Positions 48,857 through 59,987 of a DNA stretch of 64,000 bases are shown here, piece by piece; position 1 is the first letter of the stretch, and each line of letters begins with the position of its first letter. A model generated the notes under the pieces. That model did not search any database and had not been told where the DNA came from. It saw nothing but the letters and a program-made list of their open reading frames with translations. Where the stretch lies: assembly GCF_013403245.1 (NCBI RefSeq), contig NZ_JACBNQ010000007.1, positions 62,001 to 126,000 on the forward strand. The letters are read 5' to 3'. This DNA is from Sedimentibacter hydroxybenzoicus DSM 7310 (lineage in GTDB: Bacteria > Bacillota > Clostridia > Tissierellales > Sedimentibacteraceae). Position numbers and translations under genes: made by a program.

Positions 48857-48885
48857 ATATACAAGATATGAGGGGAGTGAAAACG

Positions 48886-50595
48886 TTGACAGCACTAATG
48901 GAATCAGAAAAGGATGTTAATGAAATTGCTAAAGCTATCGCATCAGCTTTAAAAATTGACGTGGAAATTGTTGATACAGAACTCATAAGGGTAGCAGTTG
49001 TAGGAAAACTTGAGTATATGAAAGGAAAAAAATTGTTTACATCCGGTTTTAACTATAAAAGATCAATTAATACCGGAGAAAAGTTTATTATAGAATTACC
49101 GGGAGAAAATGAGCTTTGCGAAGGTTGTGAATGGCATGGCGATTGTATATATAAGATGGTTGTTTATGCTCCTATAAAAGGAAAGGATGAGGTTGTTGGT
49201 GTAATTTCATTAACAGCATTTAATGATGAGCAATATGAAATATTAAAAAACAATTTAAATGCAAACCTATCCTTTGTTGACATAATGGCAAATCTTATTT
49301 TTAGTAAGGTAATGGAAAATAGGATGCTTAAAGATACCCTTATTATGAAAGATAAGCTTAATCAAGTTATTAATTCAATAGACAGCGGTATTATAGCAAC
49401 TGATAATGAAGGAAGAATAACACACATAAATCAGGTAGGCATAGAAAAACTTAAACTGTTCAGTAAAGAAAATATCTTGGGTATTAAATTAAAAAATATA
49501 TTTCCTGCTCTTGAGTATGAAAAAATTTTAAATTCCAGAGAAAAAAATCTTAAAAAGCAGGAAATATGCAATTTAATAAATTCAAAGCATGATAAGTATA
49601 TAGTTAATATAAGAAAAGTATTTTTTAATAATGAACTGGAGGGAATAGTTCTTTCGTTTGAAAATTATAATAATGCCAAAAGCAGTGCTTATACGCTTGT
49701 CAGCGGAGATATACCTATAAGCACAGATGATATCATTGGGCACAGTGCAGCTATGAGCAATGTTAAAAAAATGACGTTAAGAATAGCAAAAAGCAATTCC
49801 ACAGTAATGTTAATAGGAGAAACAGGTACAGGAAAAGAGGTTTTTGCAAGAGCCATTCATTATCACAGCTTAAGGAGAGACAAGCCCTTTGTTACTATAA
49901 ATTGTAGTGCTATTCCCGATACTTTAATAGAAAGTGAGTTATTCGGGTATGAAAAAGGAGCATTTACCGGAGCTAATAAGCTTGGTAAGCCCGGAAAATT
50001 TGAGATAGCAAATGGCGGTACTTTATTCCTTGATGAAATTGAAGCATTACCTATACATATGCAGCCAAAATTACTTAGAGTGTTACAAGAAAAAGAAGTT
50101 ATCAGAGTAGGGTCAAATGAAACATTGCCTATCGATGTAAGAATTATTTCGGCAACAAATGCAAATCTTGAGAATGCAATAAAAAAGGGGGAATTTCGTG
50201 CAGATTTATATCATAGATTGAACGTTATTCCAATCGTTATCCCGCCGCTTAGAGAAAGAAGGGAAGACATCATTTTACTTACAAATTATTTTATCGATAA
50301 ATTTTCAAAAGTAATGGGAAGAAATATTAAAGGTATTGAAAAAGAGTTAGATACGCTTTTATTAAATTATCCATGGCCCGGTAATGTAAGAGAATTAAAA
50401 AATGCCATAGAATTTGCGATAAATCTTGAAGAGGGCGAATATATAACTATTAACAATATTCCGTTAACTATCAGAGAGTTTAGTGAACCTCAGGAAATTA
50501 AGGAACAAACATTGAAGGAAATTGAAAATTATCATATTAAGGAAGCCCTGAATAAATACGGATGGGATGAGAACGGCCGGCTTTTAGCAGCATAA
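48886..50595 (+). CDS. sigma-54-dependent transcriptional activator, DNA-binding helix cut off by TAA
   Basis: A 569-residue activator with an N-terminal sensor region (a cysteine cluster C78-x2-C81-x5-C87), a PAS domain (about 155-265) and an AAA+ sigma-54 interaction domain (Walker A GETGTGKE at 311-318, GAFTGA, Walker B GGTLFLDE). TTG 48886 is 8 bases after AGGGGAG; an in-frame ATG at 48868 lies before that site. The frame stops at 50593 inside the C-terminal Fis-type helix-turn-helix; the missing end is still encoded downstream. It should control the oxidation operon through the sigma-54 promoter at 50879. Confidence 0.88.
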
Positions 50596-50646
50596 AAATT
50601 AGGTATAAGCAGAGCTACTGTTTATAGGAAAATTAAAAATCTATAA
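50596..50646 (+). pseudogene. severed C-terminal HTH of the sigma-54 activator
   Basis: Directly after the TAA and in the same frame the sequence encodes KLGISRATVYRKIKNL-stop, the second half of a Fis-type helix-turn-helix (GxSRxTxYRKIK). Together with ENGRLLAA before the stop this would be a normal domain if the TAA were AAA or another sense codon. Confidence 0.85.
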
Positions 50647-50684
50647 CATCTCAACTTGACATGTTGGTATCAAGTTGAGATGTT
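50645..50684. promoter_or_regulatory. perfect palindrome, likely activator binding site
   Basis: AACATCTCAACTTGA (50645-50659) pairs exactly with TCAAGTTGAGATGTT (50670-50684) around 10 bases. No T-run follows. A half-site, TCAAATTGAGATG, recurs at 50739-50751. The distance of 195-235 bp to the sigma-54 promoter is typical for enhancer-like sites. It could also be a weak terminator for the activator gene. Confidence 0.6.
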
Positions 50685-50830
50685 AACGATATCATTAGTT
50701 TTTTGATAAATACAGCAAGAACACTTTGTGAACATGTGTCAAATTGAGATGAAAAATTAATTCTTTAATGCTTTGAATTAGTTTTTTTTATTATAAAAAT
50801 ATATATTAAAAAAAACAAAGCTTAATTTTT

Positions 50831-50878: not shown

Positions 50879-50895
50879 TTGGTATAGATTTTGCT
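50879..50895 (+). promoter_or_regulatory. sigma-54 (-24/-12) promoter
   Basis: TTGGTATAGATTTTGCT matches the YTGGCACG-N4-TTGCW pattern with intact GG and GC dinucleotides in exact spacing. It is 65 bases before the first gene of the oxidation operon and downstream of a sigma-54 activator gene. Confidence 0.8.
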
Positions 50896-50959
50896 AATTA
50901 TAACTTATAGCAACTTCGTAAAATGATACGAAAAATAAAATTATTTTGGAGGATATAGT

Positions 50960-52084
50960 ATGAAAGGCAAAAGAACAACTTTTCTTTATTTGTCAGAACC
51001 GGACATGATTAAAGCAGGAGTGCTTGACGGTAAACAATGTGTTCAGGCTATCGATGACATGTTTAAGGTTGTAGGGGAAGGCGATTATATTATGGGAGGC
51101 TTAAGTGGAAATGAACATGGACAACGTATATATTTCCCACCGGAAAAGCTGTTTCCTAATATGCCCGTTGCCGGTCCCGATCGTCGTTTTATGGCTATGA
51201 TAGCCTATCTTGGTGGTAAATTCAATGTTTGTGCAGAAAAATGGTATGGTTCTAATATTGAAAATAGCAAGCACGGTCTTCCAAGATCAGTCCTGATTGT
51301 TGTTTTAAATGATGTAGAAACAGGTGAGCCCTTAACAATTATGTCAGCTAATCTTCTGAGTGCAATGAGAACAGGTGCTGTTCCGGCAGTCGGTGCAAAA
51401 TATCTTGCAAGTAAAAATGCAAAAATTGCTGCCTGTATAGGTGCCGGCGTTATAAGCAAGGCTACTATAACCTGTATGAAAGCCGCCCTTCCTCAACTGG
51501 AAAAAGCTTTGGTTTATGATTTATTTACCGAAAAATCAAAAGATTTTTGTGAAGAAATGAGCGAAAAACTGGGATTTCAATTTGAAGTTGCTGATTCAAT
51601 GGAAGAAGCAGTCAGAGCAGCCGACGTAATAACTATTGCAACAGCCGGGAAAAGCAAACCAATACTTAAAAAAGAATGGGTTAAGCCAAATGCTTTTATT
51701 GCTACACAAGGTACTGCTGATATCCCTGATGATTTATTTACCTCTTCCCGTATAGTATTTGATGAAACACAGATGCATAAATCCTGGAAAGAGGAAGAGG
51801 AAGCAATTCCGGAGGAACATGCTTCCAAGCGTCTTGGTTTCCCAGGTGCAGGGGTATTCCGTTTATGTGATGAAGGTAAAATAAATCTGTCAGATATTTG
51901 TGATCTAAGTAAAATAGCTTATGGAACAGAACAGGGCAGAACAAATGAAGATGAAAGATTTATATTAATAGTAGGAGGAATGCCTGTAGAAGATGCTGCA
52001 TGGGGTCGTGTTCTTTTTGATAATGCGGTTAAAATGGGAATAGGGCAAGAATTGGTTCTTTGGGAAGAGGCATATTGGAGGTAA
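50960..52084 (+). CDS. ornithine cyclodeaminase / mu-crystallin family protein
   Basis: A 374-residue member of the ornithine cyclodeaminase/mu-crystallin superfamily: NAD(P)-binding Rossmann core with IGAGVISKATITCMKAA (about residues 159-175) and the substrate-side stretch LLSAMRTGAVPAVGAKYL. Family members deaminate or reduce cyclic or linear imines (ketimine reductases, alanine dehydrogenases). The N-terminal region is longer than in classical ornithine cyclodeaminase. As first gene of a sigma-54-controlled operon it may reduce or hydrolyse an imine from the dehydrogenase encoded downstream; this is inference. GGAGG precedes the ATG. Confidence 0.85.
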   Translation: MKGKRTTFLYLSEPDMIKAGVLDGKQCVQAIDDMFKVVGEGDYIMGGLSGNEHGQRIYFPPEKLFPNMPVAGPDRRFMAMIAYLGGKFNVCAEKWYGSNIENSKHGLPRSVLIVVLNDVETGEPLTIMSANLLSAMRTGAVPAVGAKYLASKNAKIAACIGAGVISKATITCMKAALPQLEKALVYDLFTEKSKDFCEEMSEKLGFQFEVADSMEEAVRAADVITIATAGKSKPILKKEWVKPNAFIATQGTADIPDDLFTSSRIVFDETQMHKSWKEEEEAIPEEHASKRLGFPGAGVFRLCDEGKINLSDICDLSKIAYGTEQGRTNEDERFILIVGGMPVEDAAWGRVLFDNAVKMGIGQELVLWEEAYWR

Positions 52085-52204
52085 AACTTTATAAAAGGTT
52101 AACGTTTTACTACCGGAAGAAGAGGCGAAAATTAACGAATTAATAATGGTTACAGTAACAAATTGTAAATTGATTATAACTATCTTATATAAGGAGTGAA
52201 AATA

Positions 52205-53701
52205 ATGCAAGATACAACATTAAGGCTAATAGTGCTTATAGGTTATTTAGTTTTTCTAATGGGCGTCGGACTTTATCAGGGTTCAAAGGCGAAGTCTTCC
52301 GCTGACTACAACATGGGCGGTCGTAACATACCCGGATGGGCAGCAGCCCTTTCAGAAAGAGCAACAGCTGAATCGGCATGGTGTCTTGTGGGCTTTCCGG
52401 GTTTTGCTTATTCGGCCGGATTAGTGACCATCTGGACAGCTCTCGGCTTAGCTCTGGGAAACATTATTGCTTGGACTGCAATAGCTAAGAGGATGCGAAA
52501 GGAAGCGGAACGCTACGATGCTCAGACATATGTGGACTGGATTGCAAAAAGGCACAATAAGAGCAAGGCTGCGACTGTGGTACGTCTTGTGGGAAGCTTT
52601 ATTATAATTTTTATGTTCGCGTTTTATGTTGAGGCGCAGATTATTGGCGGGGGTAAAACTCTTAATGCACTTTTTGGCTTGAATCCAACTACCGGTATTC
52701 TGCTTACGATGGCTATAATTGTACCCTACACCGTATGGGGTGGCTTTCAGAGCGTTGTTTATACAGACTGTATTCAATCAATTATCATGATATTTACATT
52801 AGTTATAGTACCGGTAATCGGAATTATTTACATAGCAAATGCTCCGGCAGGAACTGTTTATGCTCATTCGATAGTGGAAGCCCTGAAAATATCCGGTCCC
52901 ACTTATAGCAACTGGTCCTATGGACTTAAGGGCATTTTGGCAGGTATGGCCATAGCCAGCGAATTTGCCTGGATTGTTGCTTACCTTGGAGGGTTACCGC
53001 ATCTTACGGTTCGTTTCATGTCTATCAGAGATGATAAGCAGTATAAGATTGGCAGAAACATTGCTTGTATCTGGACTGTTGTAGGCTACACAGGTGCAGT
53101 CCTTATCGGTCTGGTGGGTCTTGCAATATTTGGACCCGGTGCTTTCAGTGACGCTGAATTGATTATGCCCACTGTTTGCTTAACGGTTCTGCCTCCTTTC
53201 CTGGCTGCGCTTTGTGTAACGGGAGCCATAGCAGCTATGATTTCAACGGCAGACTCCATGTTAATCGTAACATCTTCTGAGTTTTGTGAAAATATTTTGA
53301 AGCCGGCAATTCTGAAAGGCAAATCCATTGAACCGAAGAAGGAGCTTTTCATCTCCAGATGTGTTACGGTTGTGGTTGGTCTTGCAGCTACCGTTCTGCC
53401 GTTTATTATACCATCAAACATGATTCACAATATAGTATCATTTGCTTGGGCAGGCATGGGAAATCCTTTCGCCGTTGTTACTTGCTGCACCCTGTTTTGG
53501 GATAAGTACACAGGTAAGGCAGCTGTATGGACTATGGTTGTAGGCTTCCTTGGTACTGTTTTATGGCAGATTTCACCTATGAACGCATACTTGAATTCAC
53601 GTCTTGTGGGTGTAATCCCTGCTTTGATCGCAGCTTATGTTGCAACGAAGCTGACGTACAAAACAGACGGACATGATGCTGTGGAAATTACTGCAAACTA
53701 A
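52205..53701 (+). CDS. sodium:solute symporter family transporter
   Basis: A 498-residue integral membrane protein of the sodium:solute symporter family (PutP-like), with about 13 spans, YNMGGRNIPGWAAALSERA near the start and the sodium-binding region CVTGAIAAMISTADSMLIV. It probably imports the substrate of the operon with sodium. AAGGAG (52191-52196) is well placed for ATG 52205; an in-frame GTG overlaps that site. It is 120 bases downstream of the cyclodeaminase-like gene. Confidence 0.92.
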   Translation: MQDTTLRLIVLIGYLVFLMGVGLYQGSKAKSSADYNMGGRNIPGWAAALSERATAESAWCLVGFPGFAYSAGLVTIWTALGLALGNIIAWTAIAKRMRKEAERYDAQTYVDWIAKRHNKSKAATVVRLVGSFIIIFMFAFYVEAQIIGGGKTLNALFGLNPTTGILLTMAIIVPYTVWGGFQSVVYTDCIQSIIMIFTLVIVPVIGIIYIANAPAGTVYAHSIVEALKISGPTYSNWSYGLKGILAGMAIASEFAWIVAYLGGLPHLTVRFMSIRDDKQYKIGRNIACIWTVVGYTGAVLIGLVGLAIFGPGAFSDAELIMPTVCLTVLPPFLAALCVTGAIAAMISTADSMLIVTSSEFCENILKPAILKGKSIEPKKELFISRCVTVVVGLAATVLPFIIPSNMIHNIVSFAWAGMGNPFAVVTCCTLFWDKYTGKAAVWTMVVGFLGTVLWQISPMNAYLNSRLVGVIPALIAAYVATKLTYKTDGHDAVEITAN

Positions 53702-53717
53702 GTGTAACAAAATTAAT

Positions 53718-53761
53718 TACAATTTTAGGATTAAGTGCAAAACACTGAACCTAAAATTGTA
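53718..53761 (+). terminator. intra-operon hairpin
   Basis: TACAATTTTAGG (53718-53729) pairs exactly with CCTAAAATTGTA (53750-53761), with an inner AGTG/CACT stem. It lacks a long T-run. It may attenuate or stabilise the message between the transporter and the dehydrogenase genes. Confidence 0.5.
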
Positions 53762-53818
53762 GTTATTTAAAGACTTTCGGACTTTATGTAAGTACTATAA
53801 GATTATTAGGAGGGCAAA

Positions 53819-54127
53819 ATGCGAATAAAACAACATCCGGTACTAACCAGTATTGTAAAAAAAGAGGTGGAGTTTACCTTCGAAGGAAAAACCTATAAAG
53901 GATATGAAGGTGAGCCCATAGCTGCTGCTTTGCATGTCAATGGCGTAAGGGTTTTAAGACATGATCACCGCCCAAGAGGTTTCTTTTGTGCAATTGGAAA
54001 CTGTTCTTCCTGTTTGATGGAAGTTGATGGAGAACCAAATGTAAGAGTTTGCGTTGAAGAGTTAAGAGAAGGAATGGTTATTAAAATGCAAGAAGGAAAA
54101 GGAAAATTAAAAGGTGGTGAAGCATAA
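53819..54127 (+). CDS. 2Fe-2S subunit of HcnABC-like dehydrogenase
   Basis: A 102-residue protein with a plant-type [2Fe-2S] motif, C57-x4-C62-x2-C65-x12-C78 (FFCAIGNCSSC, VRVCVEE). It matches the small N-terminal subunit of multi-subunit amino-acid or amine dehydrogenases (HcnA, opine oxidase, and the start of sarcosine oxidase alpha). AGGAGGG precedes the ATG. Its stop overlaps the next start by one base (TAATG), so the two subunits are translated together. Confidence 0.88.
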   Translation: MRIKQHPVLTSIVKKEVEFTFEGKTYKGYEGEPIAAALHVNGVRVLRHDHRPRGFFCAIGNCSSCLMEVDGEPNVRVCVEELREGMVIKMQEGKGKLKGGEA

Positions 54128-55200
54128 TGTTACATACAGAGATAGCAATAATAGGCGGCGGGCCGGCCGGAATGTGTGCGGCAATAGCTGCTGCAGGTCA
54201 GGGTGCAAGAGTGACTTTATTTGACAGAGGAAAAAAATTAGGCGGTCAATTAGTTAAACAAACACATAGATTTTTTGGTTCCGAAAAAGAATATGCAGGT
54301 ATCAGAGGAATAGATATTGCTAAAATTTTATGTGATGAAGTAGAAAAAAATAAGTTAATAGACGTAAAAACTGATACAACGATACTTGCTATCTACAATG
54401 ATGGTGTCATCACTTATGAAGAAGGGAAAAATTACAAAAGAATTACAAGCGAAAAAACTATAATTGCTACAGGTGCTTCAGAAAAAATGCTTTTGTTTGA
54501 AAATAATGATTTACCCGGAGTATATGGTGCAGGAGCAGTTCAGACTCTAATGAATGAACACGGTATAGTACCGGGAAATAAAGTATTAATGATTGGTGCC
54601 GGAAATATAGGTCTTATTGTATCTTATCAATTAATGCAAGCCGGTGTAAAGGTGGAAGCTATTATAGATGCATCTCCAAATATAGGAGGATACTTAGTTC
54701 ACGCTTCTAAAGTAAAACGTTTAGGTGTGCCTATACTTACTTCTCATACAATAAAAAGAGCATTAGGAAAGGAATCTGTTGAGGGTGCAGTTATCTGCGA
54801 ATTAGATGAAAAGTGGCAGCCTGTTTCGGGAACGGAAAAGGAATTAGATGTGGATGTAATATGCCTTGCAGTAGGATTATCTCCTCAAAGTGAACTGTTA
54901 AGACATACCGGCTGCGAAGTGAAGTATGTTCCAGGTCTTGGAGGATACGTTCCAATGCGGGACGGAAATCTTCAGACTACCGTTAATGGTATTTATGTTG
55001 CAGGGGATACGGCAGAAGTAGAAGAGGCAAGCAGTGCCATGGTTGAAGGAACAATAGCAGGTCTTTCAGCCGCAGAATCTTTGGGATACGGAAAAAATAT
55101 TTCTGAACTGAAAAAAAGCTTTATAAGTGATCTTGATAGTTTAAGATCGGGTGCAGTAGGTGAAAAAATAAGATCTGGTATACAAAAACTGGGCTGTTAG
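54127..55200 (+). CDS. FAD/NAD(P)-dependent oxidoreductase subunit (HcnB-like)
   Basis: A 357-residue flavoprotein with an N-terminal FAD-binding motif IIGGGPAGMCAAIAAAGQG, a central second Rossmann motif IGAGNIGLIVSYQL and the late YVAGDTAEVEEASSAM FAD motif. The GGQLVKQTHRFFG segment is typical of HcnB / sarcosine-oxidase-alpha-like subunits that pass electrons within the dehydrogenase complex. It would pair with the 2Fe-2S protein before it and the DAO subunit at 55975. Confidence 0.9.
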   Translation: MLHTEIAIIGGGPAGMCAAIAAAGQGARVTLFDRGKKLGGQLVKQTHRFFGSEKEYAGIRGIDIAKILCDEVEKNKLIDVKTDTTILAIYNDGVITYEEGKNYKRITSEKTIIATGASEKMLLFENNDLPGVYGAGAVQTLMNEHGIVPGNKVLMIGAGNIGLIVSYQLMQAGVKVEAIIDASPNIGGYLVHASKVKRLGVPILTSHTIKRALGKESVEGAVICELDEKWQPVSGTEKELDVDVICLAVGLSPQSELLRHTGCEVKYVPGLGGYVPMRDGNLQTTVNGIYVAGDTAEVEEASSAMVEGTIAGLSAAESLGYGKNISELKKSFISDLDSLRSGAVGEKIRSGIQKLGC

Positions 55201-55210
55201 GAGGTGCATT

Positions 55211-55702
55211 ATGTTTAAAAAAACCGGTGTAGCAACTAAAAATATGGTGGAGGAAAAACTGCCGTCAAAAGAAATAAGAGAAAAGGGACCATATGCAATA
55301 TTTGAATGTTTTCAGGAAATTCCATGCAATCCTTGCTCAACCGTATGTAAATCAAATGCGGTTAAAGACTTTGAAAATATAAATAATATTCCGGAAGTAG
55401 ATTGTGAGAATTGTACGGGCTGTGCTTTATGTGTAAGCATTTGTCCGGGACTTGCTTGTTTCGTAATTGATGAAACATATTCAGATAACGAAGTTTTGAT
55501 AAAATTGCCTTATGAATTTTTACCTTTACCTGAAGTAAATAGCATCGTAGATGCTTTAGACCGGGAGGGAAGAGTTGTCGGTAAGGCCAAGGTTCTAAAG
55601 GTACAAGATAATAAAAAGCTTGACCATACCAATATAATTACTATTTCAGTTCCTAAAGAAATATTTCTCGATGTCAGAAACATAGGATTGGAGGAGAAAT
55701 AA
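55211..55702 (+). CDS. ferredoxin-type electron transfer subunit
   Basis: A 163-residue protein with a first cysteine group C39-x2-C42-x3-C46 (PCNPCSTVCKSNAV) and a full [4Fe-4S] motif C68-x2-C71-x2-C74-x3-C78-P, with C65 as likely fourth ligand of the first cluster. The C-terminal half (residues 85-160) has no iron motif and may bind the partner. It probably carries electrons from the flavoprotein subunits to ferredoxin. AGGAGGTG precedes the ATG. Confidence 0.82.
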   Translation: MFKKTGVATKNMVEEKLPSKEIREKGPYAIFECFQEIPCNPCSTVCKSNAVKDFENINNIPEVDCENCTGCALCVSICPGLACFVIDETYSDNEVLIKLPYEFLPLPEVNSIVDALDREGRVVGKAKVLKVQDNKKLDHTNIITISVPKEIFLDVRNIGLEEK

Positions 55703-55703
55703 T

Positions 55704-55982
55704 ATGGACGAAAAAAATATATATTTATGTCGTTGTGAAAACTTTACGTTGAAAGAATTACATGATCTTTTGGATTCCGGAATTACGTCCATGGAAGAAA
55801 TTAAGAGACTTTCTCGTGGTACTATGGGACCTTGTCAGGGAAAAACATGCAGAGATTTAATAGCTAAAGAAATTGCAAATTACCTGAATAAAGATATGTC
55901 GGAAATAGATATGCCTACTTATAGGGCTCCGGTAAAACCAGTTAAGCTCGGAGAAATTGCAGGAGGTAATAAAAATGCGTAA
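55704..55982 (+). CDS. BFD-like 2Fe-2S protein
   Basis: A 92-residue BFD-like [2Fe-2S] protein with the ligands C9-x-C11 and C44-x4-C49 (LCRCENFT, GPCQGKTCRDLI). In HcnABC-like and sarcosine-type dehydrogenases such a domain links the flavoprotein subunits. It starts one base after the ferredoxin gene ends, and its last 8 bases overlap the DAO gene start. Confidence 0.88.
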   Translation: MDEKNIYLCRCENFTLKELHDLLDSGITSMEEIKRLSRGTMGPCQGKTCRDLIAKEIANYLNKDMSEIDMPTYRAPVKPVKLGEIAGGNKNA

Positions 55983-57117
55983 AAAGGCAGATGTTGTTGT
56001 TATAGGCGGTGGGTCTATAGGTTGTTCAGTTGCCTATAACTTAGCTAAAAAAGGATTTAAAAATATTGTTTTACTGGAAAGAAAATATTTATCAAGTGGT
56101 TCGACCGGAAGGTGCGGTGCAGGAATAAGACAAATGTGGGGAACAGAAATGAATTGTCTTATTTCCAGAGGAAGTGCGGAAATTTTTAAAACATTAGGAG
56201 AAGAAACAGGTTTTGGTGATGTAGAATTCAGACAAAGCGGGTATTTATTAACTACATATGATCCGTCGCAAACGGAAAGATTAAGAAAGAATCTTGCGGT
56301 TCAGCATAAATTAGGTATAAATTCTCATATGATTACTCCGAAAGAAGCAAAGGAAATAGTGCCTTATGTTAATACCGAAGGAATGGATGCCGCATTTTTT
56401 TGTCAGGAGGATGGTCATATAAATCCATTTAAAGTAACATTTGCATTTGCAAAAGGGGCACAGGATTTAGGGGTGGAAATAAGCAGATATAATTCGGTAA
56501 CAGATATTAAATATAAAGACAGGAAAATAACCTCGATTGTTACGGAGGAAGGAGAAATTTTAACAGACGCAGTAGTAAATGCGGCTGGTGCATGGTGTAA
56601 AGAAATCGGTAAAATGATAGGCCTATCACACCCGGTTGAGCCGGAAAGACATCAGATTTTAATTACTGAGCCATTAGAAGATATGATGGGTCCATTGGTT
56701 ATGTCGTTTGCTCACGATTCATATATACAGCAGGTTCCGCACGGCGGGTTCATAATGGGTTATGGAAATCCTGACGAGCCAAAAAAAATTAATTTTAATC
56801 ATGACTGGAGTTTCTTGGAGCAAATGGCCAAAAAGGCTGTTTTTCAGCTTCCTGTCTTAAAGGATGTAAGATTTGTAAGACAATGGGCGGGTCATTATGA
56901 AATATCTCCTGATGGTCAGCCAATTTTAGGTTCTGTACCAGAAATGGATAATTATTTTATGGCATTGGGATGCGGTAAAGGATTTATGCTATCACCGATG
57001 ATAGGAAAACTAATAGCTGAAAAAATGGCGGGAGAAGCAACTTCATTGCCGATTGATTCATTAAGCATTGAAAGATTTGCTAAAGGCGAATTAATTGTAG
57101 AAACAGGTGTAGTTTAA
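55975..57117 (+). CDS. DAO-family FAD-dependent oxidoreductase (catalytic subunit)
   Basis: A 380-residue D-amino-acid-oxidase-fold flavoprotein with the N-terminal FAD motif VVVIGGGSIGCSVAYNLAKKG, GSTGRCGAGIRQ and the C-terminal GHYEISPDGQPILG and MALGCGKGFMLSPMIG segments. In HcnABC, sarcosine and proline dehydrogenase complexes this subunit oxidises the amine or amino acid. AGGAGGT lies before ATG 55975, preferred over an upstream in-frame ATG at 55957. The substrate cannot be deduced. Confidence 0.9.
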   Translation: MRKKADVVVIGGGSIGCSVAYNLAKKGFKNIVLLERKYLSSGSTGRCGAGIRQMWGTEMNCLISRGSAEIFKTLGEETGFGDVEFRQSGYLLTTYDPSQTERLRKNLAVQHKLGINSHMITPKEAKEIVPYVNTEGMDAAFFCQEDGHINPFKVTFAFAKGAQDLGVEISRYNSVTDIKYKDRKITSIVTEEGEILTDAVVNAAGAWCKEIGKMIGLSHPVEPERHQILITEPLEDMMGPLVMSFAHDSYIQQVPHGGFIMGYGNPDEPKKINFNHDWSFLEQMAKKAVFQLPVLKDVRFVRQWAGHYEISPDGQPILGSVPEMDNYFMALGCGKGFMLSPMIGKLIAEKMAGEATSLPIDSLSIERFAKGELIVETGVV

Positions 57118-57149
57118 TTCATAAAATAGATAGGAGTTGAGTTATTGTT

Positions 57150-57542
57150 ATGACTTTAAGGTTTGAAAACGAAACTTGTTCGGGATGCAAAGCTTGTCAG
57201 TTGGTATGTACTTTACATAATTTTAAAGAAATAAATCCATCAAAAGCCATGCTGAATGTTCATGGCAGGTTTCCGGCACCGGGAAAATACCATGTTGATG
57301 TTTGTAATCAGTGTGGTGAATGTGCTGAAGCATGTCCCGCAGAAGCCATAAAGTTCAAAGATGGTACATACATTATAGATTATGATATATGTATCGAGTG
57401 CTTAATATGTGTTGACGCATGTCCAACAAATGTAATGAAAGTAAATAAAGAAGATAATACTCCATATAAATGTAATAATTGCAGGCAATGTGTGGAAATA
57501 TGCCCAAGAGATGCTTTGATATTCGAACAGAAAGGAGCATAA
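57150..57542 (+). CDS. four-cluster ferredoxin, AOR electron partner
   Basis: A 130-residue protein with four [4Fe-4S] motifs: C10-C13-C16-C20, C52-C55-C58-C62-P, C81-C84-C87-C91-P and C108-C111-C114-C118-P. This is the HycB-like layout often found next to aldehyde:ferredoxin oxidoreductases. It would take electrons from the AOR encoded two bases downstream, or join it to the dehydrogenase chain. AGGAGT precedes the ATG at some distance. Confidence 0.88.
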   Translation: MTLRFENETCSGCKACQLVCTLHNFKEINPSKAMLNVHGRFPAPGKYHVDVCNQCGECAEACPAEAIKFKDGTYIIDYDICIECLICVDACPTNVMKVNKEDNTPYKCNNCRQCVEICPRDALIFEQKGA

Positions 57543-57544
57543 AT

Positions 57545-59419
57545 ATGATATACGGATATGCGGGTACTACTTTAAGGATTGATTTAACTGATGAAAAGAT
57601 AGTTAAAGAGCCTCTGAAACAAGAATGGGTTGATGGATATATAGGCGGAAGAGGTTTTACCGCAAAAATATTGTTTGACGAAAATCCTCCTGAGGTGGAT
57701 CCTTATGAAGGAGATAATATTTTCATAATAGCGATGGGTCCATTGAGCGGACATCTTTTACCTGCAAGCGGAAAGACCCATTTTTGTACTAAATCCCCGG
57801 CTACCGGAGGATATGGTGACAGCAACATGGGCGGACATTTCGGAGTTAATATGAAATATGCGGGATATGACGTTATGATTTTAAAAGGTAAGGCAAAACA
57901 ACAAAGCTATATCTTTATAGAAGATGATAATGTAGAAATACGACCTGCACAACAATATTGGGGCAAGGGCTCTACACAAGTAGAAGAAGAATTAAAAAAA
58001 GAGCTTGGAGAAGACTTTCAAATTTTGACAATAGGACCGGCAGGTGAAAATCTTGTTAAATTTGCATGTATATCCCATGATTTTGGAAGGCAGGCAGGAA
58101 GAATAGGAATAGGAGCTGTTCTTGGCTCCAAGAATATTAAAGCAATAGCAGTAAAGGGAACGAAAAGCATCCCTGTATTTGATCCGGCAGGACTTTTACA
58201 AAAGGGTAAAGAAACATACGCTGCATGCAGAGCAAAACCCGGGTTTACGGCATGGACTCCGCAGGGAACCGCCGGTATAACAGATTGGTGCAATAATGTA
58301 GGTGCTTTGCCCACAAGGAATTTTAAAACTTCATATTGTGATTATGCCGATAAAATAAATGGTCAGGCAATATTAAAAGAATTAAAGATAACTGACAAAG
58401 GTTGCTTCGCATGTCCTATACCATGCGGCAAATACGGCTTTGCTAAAACTAAATTAGGTAATGCATATGTGGAAGGTCCCGAGTACGAAACATTATCCCT
58501 TCTTGGAAGCAACTGTGAAGTTAAGGATATACATGAAATTGCATATTTAAATTATATTTGTGATGAATTAGGATTAGATACTTGTTCAGGCGGTGCTGTT
58601 GTAAGCTTTGCACTTGAATGTTATGAAAAGGGTTTAATTTCAAAAGAAGATATGGGAATGGATGTAAAATTCGGAGATTTGGAATCCATAGTACATATAC
58701 TAAAAATAATAACAGAAAGAAAAGGCATTGGGAATGCTTTAGCAGATGGAGTTAAGGCCGCTGCAGAGGTAGTCGGCAACGATAGTGACAAATTTGCAAT
58801 ACATGTTAAGGGGTTAGAATGGACCGGTTATGAAAGCAGAAATGCACCAGGTATGATGCTTGGGTATATGACTGCTGATATAGGAGCACATCATGGTCGC
58901 TGCTGGGTTTTAGGTAATGATGTGGCAGGATCCGCTGATGCAGGCAATGTAACTGATTTAATCACATCAGAACAAAATACAACTACATTATCAAAGGCAA
59001 AGCACGAGCATGTAGTACCGATAGTTTTAAAAAGCCAGCATACCCGTCCAGCATTTGATATATTAGGAACGTGCAGATTGCAATATATGGAGATAGGTCT
59101 TGAAACAGATTATTATGAGGATTTATTCTATACAATTACAGGGAAAAAAATAAAATGGGACGAGTTATTAAAATTATCCGAAAAAATATGGACCTTAAAC
59201 AGAATGTATAATTTTAGAGAAATCAGCGATTTTGGCAGAAAATATGATTATCCGCCTGCAAGATTTTATGAAGAGCCAATACCTGACGGACCTAACAAAG
59301 GACATTTTATAGCATTAGACGTTATAGAGCAAATGCTTGACGAATATTATTCTGCAAGAGGTTGGGATAATAATGGTTATCCAACCGAAGAAACCTTGAT
59401 AAATTTTGGATTAGCTTAA
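57545..59419 (+). CDS. tungsten aldehyde:ferredoxin oxidoreductase
   Basis: A 624-residue AOR, which oxidises aldehydes to acids and reduces ferredoxin with a tungstopterin and a [4Fe-4S] cluster. Visible are the pterin-binding YGDSNMGGHFG (residues 90-100), the cluster cysteines in CFACPIPCGKYG, the far cysteine in CDELGLDTCSGG and YMTADIGAHHGRCW. AAAGGAG is 8 bases before ATG 57545; the frame is open to 57479 inside the ferredoxin gene. With the MoaD-like gene next, the operon supplies its own cofactor sulfur carrier. Confidence 0.95.
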   Translation: MIYGYAGTTLRIDLTDEKIVKEPLKQEWVDGYIGGRGFTAKILFDENPPEVDPYEGDNIFIIAMGPLSGHLLPASGKTHFCTKSPATGGYGDSNMGGHFGVNMKYAGYDVMILKGKAKQQSYIFIEDDNVEIRPAQQYWGKGSTQVEEELKKELGEDFQILTIGPAGENLVKFACISHDFGRQAGRIGIGAVLGSKNIKAIAVKGTKSIPVFDPAGLLQKGKETYAACRAKPGFTAWTPQGTAGITDWCNNVGALPTRNFKTSYCDYADKINGQAILKELKITDKGCFACPIPCGKYGFAKTKLGNAYVEGPEYETLSLLGSNCEVKDIHEIAYLNYICDELGLDTCSGGAVVSFALECYEKGLISKEDMGMDVKFGDLESIVHILKIITERKGIGNALADGVKAAAEVVGNDSDKFAIHVKGLEWTGYESRNAPGMMLGYMTADIGAHHGRCWVLGNDVAGSADAGNVTDLITSEQNTTTLSKAKHEHVVPIVLKSQHTRPAFDILGTCRLQYMEIGLETDYYEDLFYTITGKKIKWDELLKLSEKIWTLNRMYNFREISDFGRKYDYPPARFYEEPIPDGPNKGHFIALDVIEQMLDEYYSARGWDNNGYPTEETLINFGLA

Positions 59420-59437
59420 AAAATTGAGGATTATGCT

Positions 59438-59686
59438 ATGAAAGTTACTTTAAAGCTATCTGAAAGCTTATTATCAATTTATAAAGAAACAGAAAAACCA
59501 TTACAAGAAATTATGGTGCTGAATTTAGAAAAACCATCTACCTTGCGAGAGATACTAATAAAAGCAGGTATTAACCCATTAATGGTACCAATGATAATCA
59601 TAAAAAACCAAAGATGTCAGTCTTTAGATTATTCAATTGAGAATGATGAAACAATTACCCTGATAGGTCCCTTAGCAGGGGGATAA
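59438..59686 (+). CDS. MoaD/ThiS-like sulfur carrier
   Basis: An 82-residue ubiquitin-fold protein ending in LIGPLAGG; the C-terminal Gly-Gly is the thiocarboxylation site of MoaD/ThiS. Its place directly after AOR strongly suggests it donates sulfur for the tungstopterin dithiolene. It is a little divergent in the N-terminal half (KVTLKLSESLLSIY). No moaE or moeB is nearby, so the partners must be encoded elsewhere. Confidence 0.88.
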   Translation: MKVTLKLSESLLSIYKETEKPLQEIMVLNLEKPSTLREILIKAGINPLMVPMIIIKNQRCQSLDYSIENDETITLIGPLAGG

Positions 59687-59737: not shown

Positions 59738-59766
59738 TTGACAATATTCATCAGTTGCAATATAAT
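59738..59766 (+). promoter_or_regulatory. consensus sigma-70 promoter of the antitoxin RNA
   Basis: TTGACA (59738-59743), 17 bases, TATAAT (59761-59766): a perfect consensus promoter. No reading frame follows before the terminator at 59866, as expected for a small RNA gene. Confidence 0.8.
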
Positions 59767-59772
59767 TGTTTT

Positions 59773-59866
59773 AAATAAAAGTAACTGCCGAATAAACGGT
59801 TAACTCCCTTGATTATCGGTAAAAATCAACCGCATCGTTCGGGAAAAACTTGGCGGTTGATTTTTT
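59773..59866 (+). ncRNA. antisense antitoxin RNA of a type I toxin-antitoxin pair
   Basis: Predicted small RNA of about 95 nt from the perfect promoter at 59738-59766 to a terminator (AATCAACCGC 59824-59833 with GCGGTTGATT 59853-59862, then TTTT). The same hairpin, read on the other strand, is the terminator of the convergent toxin message, so the two RNAs overlap at their 3' ends by at least about 45 bases. This is the arrangement of txpA/ratA and bsrG/SR4. Confidence 0.7.
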
Positions 59867-59897
59867 ATACTCCGAAATCCCTCTTATGTATAAAAAT

Positions 59898-59987
59898 CTA
59901 TTTCAGCTTGTCTTTAGACAAGGCAATAACTGATACTATCAACGCTCCGAATGCAAACATACATATCAAAGCTTCATAAGTAACCAA
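59898..59987 (-). CDS. putative holin-like type I toxin (TxpA/BsrG-like)
   Basis: A 29-residue peptide: VTYEALICMFAFGALIVSVI followed by ALSKDKLK. It has the family shape: a short start with a conserved YEAL/FEAL-type segment, one membrane span and a lysine-rich end. Such toxins damage the membrane when made in excess. GGGAGGTG precedes TTG 59987. In the message leader, CTCCCT (plus strand 60001-59996 side) can pair with AGGGAG and hide the ribosome site, which is common in type I toxins. Confidence 0.75.
   Translation of the reverse strand: MVTYEALICMFAFGALIVSVIALSKDKLK

What the first reader, a model, noticed from the sequence alone, without database searches (positions are those of the whole stretch)
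50879..59686. Sigma-54-controlled operon joining an HcnABC-like amine dehydrogenase to a tungsten aldehyde oxidoreductase
Nine genes in one direction after a near-consensus sigma-54 promoter encode a mu-crystallin/ornithine-cyclodeaminase-like protein, a sodium symporter, 2Fe-2S, FAD, ferredoxin, BFD-like and DAO subunits, a four-cluster ferredoxin, AOR and a MoaD-like carrier. Overlaps and short gaps suggest coupled translation from 53819 to 59686. From the families: the dehydrogenase would oxidise an amine or amino acid to an imine/aldehyde, AOR would oxidise the aldehyde to an acid, both feeding low-potential electrons to ferredoxin. I infer a complete amine-to-acid catabolic route with its own tungstopterin sulfur carrier. 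The substrate and the role of the cyclodeaminase-like protein are open.
Basis: partly seen in the sequence, partly recalled or inferred. Interest (0 to 1): 0.85.

Follow-up and report, generated by a model that had tools for sequence, protein, structure and literature searches.

The report
Proline-to-glutamate operon using a tungsten enzyme
An anaerobic bacterium appears to break down proline with a multi-part flavin enzyme followed by a tungsten-type aldehyde enzyme that stands where some related bacteria keep the ordinary second enzyme of proline breakdown, which would give this little-understood tungsten enzyme family a concrete and testable job.

Summary
The genes are there: ten in one direction (not nine) behind a sigma-54 activator gene, three palindromic sites and a plausible sigma-54 promoter. 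The HcnABC-like dehydrogenase beside a ferredoxin and an aldehyde:ferredoxin oxidoreductase (AOR) is conserved. Of 82 other loci with at least 1.5 kb downstream of hcnC, 6 have the window's FOR-type AOR there, 16 another AOR type, 8 a pyrroline-5-carboxylate (P5C) dehydrogenase, all 8 over curated cut-offs, and 52 neither. The alternatives interleave on the HcnC tree. HcnC is closest in the PDB to the archaeal L-proline dehydrogenase subunit. All 24 linked AORs, but 6 of 46 others, carry both basic residues aligned with FOR Arg481/Arg492. I read the operon as proline to P5C/glutamate semialdehyde to glutamate, a tungsten-type enzyme in place of P5C dehydrogenase.

The cyclodeaminase-like gene is not a conserved partner, and low-potential electrons from the dehydrogenase are unlikely. 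Against: this genome has a P5C dehydrogenase elsewhere, the activator gene has a stop in its DNA-binding domain, and nothing was assayed.

The parts
48868..50595 (+). sigma-54 activator (EBP) with AAA+ domain and GAFTGA, weak PAS-like match; ends at an in-frame TAA within the Fis-type helix-turn-helix
50647..50663 (.). palindromic putative activator site CATCTCAACTTGACATG
50666..50682 (.). putative activator site (3 mismatches to the palindrome)
50735..50751 (.). putative activator site (2 mismatches)
50880..50895 (+). sigma-54 (-24/-12) promoter candidate, 9 of 12 consensus positions
50960..52084 (+). OCD/mu-crystallin family protein of NF004848 ('tyramine oxidase subunit B'); not a curated ornithine cyclodeaminase
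52196..53701 (+). sodium:solute symporter; PutP is its best-scoring equivalog model but below cut-off (309 of 515.5)
53715..53764 (+). strong RNA hairpin between symporter and hcnA, no T-run
53819..54127 (+). HcnA-like [2Fe-2S] subunit (C-X4-C-X2-C-X12-C)
54127..55200 (+). HcnB-like FAD subunit with two GxGxxG motifs
55211..55702 (+). ferredoxin-like subunit (Fdx1); Pfam ferredoxin matches are below gathering scores
55704..55982 (+). BFD-like [2Fe-2S] subunit (SO_alpha_A3/Fer2_BFD)
55975..57117 (+). HcnC/DAO catalytic subunit, L-proline dehydrogenase type
57150..57542 (+). four-[4Fe-4S] ferredoxin, WorS-like
57545..59419 (+). FOR-type AOR (WorL): proposed glutamate-semialdehyde:ferredoxin oxidoreductase
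59438..59686 (+). small protein, MoaD/ThiS- or WorX-like by position and size only; no family model matched

Best explanation
A sigma-54-type proline catabolism operon. HcnA-HcnB-Fdx1-BFD-HcnC is a heteromeric L-proline dehydrogenase of the archaeal dye-linked (PDH1) type and oxidises proline to P5C, which opens to glutamate-5-semialdehyde. Fdx4 and the FOR-type AOR form a two-subunit ferredoxin-dependent oxidoreductase that oxidises the semialdehyde to glutamate, taking the place that P5C dehydrogenase has in some relatives; the MoaD-like protein helps make its cofactor. The symporter brings in proline or a precursor. The OCD-like protein is a separable addition that may feed the same pool by reducing an imine or cyclising an amino acid. 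Shown here: gene content, recurrent HcnABC-Fdx4-AOR linkage, P5C dehydrogenase in the same position in relatives, basic residues in linked AORs. Inferred: substrates, reactions, metal, electron flow, regulation.
For: P5C dehydrogenase lies 21-314 bp downstream of hcnC in 8 of 82 loci, all over curated cut-offs (TIGR01237 767.9-769.6 against 659.65; TIGR01236 786-833.3 against 613.6). AOR stands there in 22 of 82 loci plus the window (6 FOR-type, 16 of a ~720-aa type). The labels interleave on a FastTree HcnC tree, 5 changes each (4, 4 and 3 forced by starred branches). HcnC: 274 bits to 1y56_B, next 158; two other HcnCs of this type 305.5 and 255.5 with next 153.5 and 130.8, an OCD-linked one only 152.4 with next 118.9; 1Y56 is L-proline dehydrogenase (PMC1949818 passages). 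Proline racemase over cut-off near hcnABC in L089, L219, L226 and related but below cut-off in L220, L232; a prolyl-tRNA synthetase gene nearby in 6 loci of one family (one scanned; the rest by similarity); ProC beside AOR in L175 (over cut-off) and L176 (84% identical), in genomes without an HcnC match at E <= 1e-60. AOR best PDB match is FOR, whose native substrate may be glutaric semi- or dialdehyde, with glutarate bound in 1B4N (PMC12096430 passages). Both basic residues in 24 of 24 linked AORs, 6 of 46 others. Sigma-54 sites of at least 10/12 upstream of hcnA in 15 of 83 loci against 54 of 4150 control windows.
Against: The window genome has a P5C dehydrogenase elsewhere (753 bits against 613.6, beside another AOR), and L220 has both AOR and P5C dehydrogenase. 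52 of 82 loci have neither enzyme directly downstream of hcnC (one, L278, has the ~720-aa AOR upstream). The window's HcnC forms a clade only with L213 (68% identity), whose locus is flanked by MttB-like methyltransferase genes (below cut-off); an N-methylated substrate is possible for this clade. A relative close to archaeal L-ProDH (BjOpnDH2) does not use proline (PMC4575208, section 22). The window locus has no proline racemase, ProRS or ProC among the ten genes. The tree is a quick one with long-branch warnings, and many loci are near relatives. The activator is truncated and the window promoter scores 9/12. The role of FOR Arg481/Arg492 is recalled, not read.
Confidence: 0.72

Rival explanations
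1. N-methyl amino acid route: HcnABC demethylates sarcosine, dimethylglycine or N-methylproline to formaldehyde and the FOR-type AOR oxidises formaldehyde to formate.
For: HcnC belongs to the SoxB/DMGDH-like superfamily; the nearest locus L213 is flanked by MttB-like methyltransferase genes (294 and 484 bits, cut-off 525); the AOR is nearest to formaldehyde:ferredoxin oxidoreductase.
Against: P5C dehydrogenase takes the AOR's place in 8 relatives; formaldehyde has no carboxylate for the conserved basic pair; FOR's lowest Km is for glutaric dialdehyde (PMC12096430).
Confidence: 0.12
2. Amine route through a secondary amine: the OCD-like imine reductase joins an amine to a 2-oxo acid, HcnABC cleaves the product to an aldehyde, AOR oxidises it (a tyramine or biogenic amine pathway).
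For: OCD is over the NF004848 cut-off (414.8 against 362). In 8 of the 10 other class genomes with this OCD type a different hcnABC lies in the same stretch, with a RidA-like gene in 6 stretches (below cut-off where scanned); in two proteobacterial plasmids the OCD gene is followed by a Rid-family gene and an FAD oxidoreductase, in one also an ALDH.
Against: Those HcnCs are a separate clade (100/100 support); the window's closest OCD relative (67%, L031) lies in a genome without an HcnC match at E <= 1e-20; no RidA among the ten genes; AOR residues suggest a carboxylated aldehyde.
Confidence: 0.1
3. Hydroxyproline or opine catabolism with 2-oxoglutarate semialdehyde or an oxo acid as product.
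For: D-hydroxyproline and opine dehydrogenases are in the same heteromeric family (PMC4575208); racemase/epimerase-family genes lie nearby in 6 loci.
Against: Five of the six score best as proline racemase (three over cut-off); L260 is nearest to trans-3-hydroxyproline dehydratase, under cut-off. Opine cleavage gives no aldehyde for an AOR.
Confidence: 0.06

Closest known systems
Dye-linked L-proline dehydrogenase PDH1 of Pyrococcus horikoshii (1Y56)
   Same: HcnC is closest to its beta subunit by over 100 bits; HcnB matches its alpha chain.
   Different: The alpha chain's first ~120 residues correspond to a separate HcnA-type subunit (PMC4575208), BFD is separate too, and a ferredoxin-like Fdx1 is added; activity untested.
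Heteromeric flavin dehydrogenases: HcnABC, D-hydroxyproline and opine dehydrogenases
   Same: Same subunit types and motifs (PMC4575208).
   Different: Extra ferredoxin subunit and an AOR in the operon; BFD cysteine spacing X32 instead of the printed X15~20.
Tungsten oxidoreductases: FOR (1B25) and Class II WorLS
   Same: Large subunit nearest to FOR, separate small subunit with four [4Fe-4S] motifs as in Class II, second-shell Glu, Tyr, His conserved.
   Different: Linked to a proline-type dehydrogenase; the 2026 classification's main text does not hold the words proline, semialdehyde or sarcosine (PMC13328260).
Proline dehydrogenase plus P5C dehydrogenase (PutA or RocA logic)
   Same: Same two-step proline to glutamate chemistry and, in 8 relatives, the same gene position.
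   Different: Second step proposed to reduce ferredoxin with a tungsten-type enzyme instead of NAD+ with an ALDH; the first enzyme is of another family.
OCD/mu-crystallin family, NF004848
   Same: Over the curated cut-off.
   Different: Window and L031 share a GTAD stretch that the other members aligned do not have in that form.

Membership tests
Heteromeric flavin amino acid dehydrogenases (HcnABC/OpnDH/D-HypDH/L-ProDH) | gamma-type [2Fe-2S] motif C-X4-C-X2-C-X11~12-C | tested here: met
   HcnA position 57; 33 of 33 HcnA hits in the loci carry it
Heteromeric flavin amino acid dehydrogenases (HcnABC/OpnDH/D-HypDH/L-ProDH) | GxGxxG in both flavin subunits and Arg-X-Trp in the beta subunit | tested here: met
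   HcnB 10 and 157, HcnC 11, RQW at 302; R-X-W in 54 of 57 HcnC hits
Heteromeric flavin amino acid dehydrogenases (HcnABC/OpnDH/D-HypDH/L-ProDH) | second [2Fe-2S] motif C-X-C-X15~20-C-X4-C | tested here: inconclusive
   Present with X32 spacing in a separate BFD subunit over the Pfam cut-offs PF17806 and PF04324; printed spacing not met
L-proline dehydrogenase, PDH1 type | closest solved relative is the PDH1 beta subunit by a clear margin | tested here: met
   274 bits against 158 next
L-proline dehydrogenase, PDH1 type | linked to P5C-handling enzymes | tested here: met
   8 of 82 loci of relatives with P5C dehydrogenase directly after hcnC; not in the window itself
L-proline dehydrogenase, PDH1 type | oxidises L-proline | not testable with these tools
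   needs enzyme assay
AOR/WOR, Class II (WorLS) | AFOR_N and AFOR_C domains plus a small subunit with four [4Fe-4S] clusters | tested here: met
   PF02730, PF01314; four CxxCxxCxxxC motifs in Fdx4
AOR/WOR, Class II (WorLS) | second-shell Glu, Tyr, His of aldehyde-oxidising members | tested here: met
   equivalents of FOR Glu308, Tyr416, His437 present (the last two numbers recalled); the conserved Thr was not checked
AOR/WOR, Class II (WorLS) | binds tungsten | not testable with these tools
   needs metal analysis
Ornithine cyclodeaminase | score over a curated ornithine cyclodeaminase model | tested here: not met
   116.1 of 417 (NF006379) and 89.3 of 350 (NF005762)
NF004848 'tyramine oxidase subunit B' | score over curated cut-off | tested here: met
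   414.8 against 362; the name's experimental basis was not found in print here
P5C dehydrogenase (TIGR01236/TIGR01237) | ALDH-fold protein over cut-off in the operon | tested here: not met
   none of the ten operon genes is an ALDH; one P5C dehydrogenase lies elsewhere in the genome at C33
Sigma-54 enhancer-binding activator | AAA+ domain with GAFTGA | tested here: met
Sigma-54 enhancer-binding activator | complete C-terminal helix-turn-helix | tested here: not met
   in-frame TAA after ...GRLLAA

The most novel reading that the evidence does not exclude
HcnA-B-Fdx1-BFD-HcnC and Fdx4-AOR work as one four-electron machine: high-potential electrons from proline and low-potential electrons from glutamate semialdehyde are merged (confurcated) on the HcnB flavin to reduce NAD+, making oxidation of proline to glutamate possible without oxygen or quinone; in the two genomes with AOR beside ProC the AOR may run backwards to make P5C from glutamate. 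Supported only indirectly: the repeated HcnB/Fdx1/AOR linkage, and NuoE/NuoF-like genes (with an [FeFe] hydrogenase in L093) downstream of AOR in L088, L092 and L093. NuoF-like and hydrogenase genes also follow hcnABC without AOR in L254, L257 and L264.
Probability: 0.2. Interest if true: 0.92.

Novelty: new variant of a known kind. Interest (0 to 1): 0.78.

Why it matters
A 2026 survey says that only five of 92 clades of tungsten oxidoreductases contain a member with a defined physiological role (PMC13328260, abstract). Here gene position points to a substrate for two AOR groups: glutamate semialdehyde, in place of P5C dehydrogenase. If right, anaerobes would gain reduced ferredoxin from proline, adding an oxidative proline pathway to the reductive Stickland one, and the proposal that FOR acts on a C5 semialdehyde could be tested in bacteria. 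I found no description of the arrangement in the held library, searched; subscription papers are mostly not held.

Tried and rejected
Considered and rejected: OCD-HcnABC-AOR as a conserved trio (only the window genome of 391 has both OCD at E <= 1e-55 and HcnC at E <= 1e-60). Ligand of the activator from its paralogs: of 30 matches in the genome the surroundings of two were read and neither points to one; the C1 paralog sits by what look by eye like purine-utilisation genes. Absence of P5C dehydrogenase from the genome: at first suggested by TIGR01237 (0 of 18 genomes over cut-off), then withdrawn because a TIGR01236 enzyme is present at C33. Read again, of the 14 hcnABC-AOR genomes only G000 has a hit of 300 bits or more to TIGR01237 (group-1 enzymes that I scanned score 323-356 there), and G210 has a 101-aa fragment; G265, with hcnABC but no AOR beside it, does have the enzyme. 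TIGR01236 itself was not searched in whole genomes. ProA (TIGR00407) is over cut-off in 110 of 148 class genomes but in 0 of the 8 hcnABC-AOR genomes of that sample; these come from three families, so I treat it as weak. UAS-like motif in related loci: none in 9 tested with up to 2 mismatches.

Rows dropped: L094 (G169, a distant HcnC) from the counts; 6 of 88 loci there have less than 1.5 kb downstream. Three class hits (G382, G418, G313) were held only as short loci (L059, L064, L065) and not examined further; 20 phylum places were not obtained. One of the 46 other AORs is cut off before the two basic positions. The loci were chosen by HcnC similarity and include near relatives, so they are not independent.


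Full report
Observation. The window holds ten co-directional genes from 50960 to 59686: OCD/mu-crystallin family, sodium:solute symporter, HcnA, HcnB, Fdx1, BFD, HcnC, four-cluster ferredoxin (Fdx4), AOR and a small MoaD-like protein (the last matches no model). Upstream lie a sigma-54 activator gene (48868-50595), three palindromic sites (50647-50663, 50666-50682, 50735-50751) and a -24/-12 candidate at 50880 with 9 of 12 consensus letters. The core TCAANTTGASATG occurs exactly four times in the 3.8-Mb genome, all within these sites; the motif was drawn from them. The activator gene has an in-frame TAA in its helix-turn-helix, so regulation may be lost or altered in this strain, or the stop is a sequencing error. 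A strong hairpin (z -7.4) lies between the symporter and hcnA.

The dehydrogenase. HcnA, HcnB and HcnC carry the family motifs published for the heteromeric HcnABC/opine/hydroxyproline/L-proline dehydrogenases (PMC4575208 section 22), apart from a longer spacing in BFD. HcnC scores 274 bits to 1y56_B, the beta subunit of P. horikoshii L-proline dehydrogenase, against 158 for the next protein. Two other HcnCs of this type behave alike, an OCD-linked one does not. On a tree the OCD-linked HcnCs form a separate clade with 100/100 support.

Conservation. In 391 class genomes HcnC (E <= 1e-60) occurs in 20, the OCD type (E <= 1e-55) in 11, the window-type AOR (E <= 1e-130) in 2. In 398 phylum genomes HcnC (E <= 1e-90) occurs in 85. 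I fetched longer neighbourhoods for 18 class and 70 phylum loci of this HcnC type, besides the window; 82 of these 88 have at least 1.5 kb downstream of hcnC. Directly downstream stand: FOR-type AOR with Fdx4 in 6 (L213, L214, L216, L220, L232, L270; 51-64% identity to the window AOR), a ~720-aa AOR type in 16 (about 28-29% identity), P5C dehydrogenase in 8, and neither in 52 (L278 among these has the ~720-aa type upstream). The eight P5C dehydrogenases are L217, L218, L251 (TIGR01237) and L224, L241, L252, L256, L260 (TIGR01236), each over its cut-off. The three kinds need 5 changes each on a FastTree HcnC tree (4, 4 and 3 forced by starred branches), which suggests repeated replacement; the tree is quick and warns of long branches. 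In L214 and L216 2-oxoacid:ferredoxin oxidoreductase-like genes follow the AOR; in L088, L092 and L093 NuoE/NuoF-like genes do, with an [FeFe] hydrogenase over cut-off in L093.

Why proline. Besides P5C dehydrogenase, proline-linked neighbours recur: proline racemase over cut-off in L089, L219, L226, and similar but below cut-off in L220 and L232, which also have the FOR-type AOR; a prolyl-tRNA synthetase gene within 4-7 kb in six loci of one family, which may be shared descent; ProC beside AOR in L175 and L176, two genomes of one genus with no HcnC match at E <= 1e-60. The window itself has only a PutP-like symporter (309 bits, below the 515.5 cut-off).

Why the AOR fits. Its best solved match is P. 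furiosus FOR. FOR has its lowest Km for glutaric dialdehyde and binds glutarate in 1B4N (PMC12096430, passages). Residues aligned with FOR Arg481 and Arg492 (whose role I recall, not read) are both basic in 24 of 24 hcn-linked AORs and in 6 of 46 other AORs. Those six include L175 and L176 (beside ProC) and L087 (beside an aminotransferase of a family that can make semialdehydes). This is partly shared descent: the window AOR group and the 720-aa group fall in one larger clade with 0.81 support.

Mechanism (inferred). Proline is taken up by the symporter and oxidised at the HcnC FAD to P5C, electrons passing over HcnB, BFD, HcnA and Fdx1. P5C opens to glutamate semialdehyde, which the AOR oxidises to glutamate, reducing Fdx4 and ferredoxin. 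The OCD-like protein is not part of the conserved unit: its closest relative found (67%, L031, Sporomusaceae) stands behind an activator gene and before what looks by eye like a glutamate symporter, in a genome with no HcnC match at E <= 1e-20.

Against. The window genome encodes a P5C dehydrogenase at C33 beside another AOR, so the operon AOR need not be its only enzyme for this step. The window's HcnC groups only with L213, whose locus is flanked by MttB-like genes (below cut-off), so an N-methylated substrate is possible here. BjOpnDH2, close to archaeal L-ProDH, is inactive on proline. Most loci (52 of 82) have neither enzyme directly downstream.

Verdict. No description was found in the held library; a 2026 classification of tungsten oxidoreductases (abstract, outline, sections 7, 9, 11 and word searches seen) has no mention of proline or semialdehyde in its main text.

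Noticed in passing
window 50593-50646: In-frame TAA inside the helix-turn-helix of the sigma-54 activator; the frame would otherwise run on to 50646. Real truncation or sequencing error.
   Followed up: partly
window 59898-59987 (-) and 59738-59880 (+): 29-aa Hol_Tox (PF16935, 31.9 bits over 23.3) small hydrophobic peptide, and on the other strand a 12/12 sigma-70 promoter followed by a hairpin with a T-run (seen by eye and by folding, not listed by the terminator scan): looks like a type I toxin-antitoxin pair.
   Followed up: partly
window 53715-53764: 15-bp RNA hairpin between symporter and hcnA, z -7.4; possible processing or attenuation site.
   Followed up: partly
L082 (G000:C20:5000-24900): Second hcnABC copy in the same genome, with a 10/12 sigma-54 site, next to an M24 peptidase-like gene (Xaa-Pro models, below cut-offs); no AOR found there.
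   Followed up: partly
L157 3686-5281: P5C dehydrogenase (TIGR01236 753 bits) of the window genome between another AOR and a gene that looks by eye like a beta-eliminating lyase.
   Followed up: partly
L175 7988-11535, L176 5568-9071: AOR (with Fdx4 called in L175) beside ProC in two genomes of one genus without an HcnC match; might run as a glutamate-reducing proline route.
   Followed up: partly
L072-L080: A separate recurrent cluster: OCD type, a distant hcnABC, and in part of the loci a RidA-like gene, an amino acid permease-like gene and a P-II-like gene.
   Followed up: partly
L213 3540-4958 and 13243-14682: MttB-like methyltransferase genes (below cut-off) on both sides of the closest relative of the window's hcnABC-AOR.
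   Followed up: no
L087 9054-12522: Window-type AOR with Fdx4, an aminotransferase and a ThiS-family protein, CoA-transferase subunit upstream: possibly another semialdehyde setting.
   Followed up: no
L181 7302-11076 (Peptoclostridium acidaminophilum): Sigma-54 regulator, AOR and MoaD/ThiS gene in a row on a large plasmid, as annotated.
   Followed up: no
class genomes: ProA is over cut-off in 110 of 148 genomes but in none of the 8 hcnABC-AOR genomes of that sample.
   Followed up: partly
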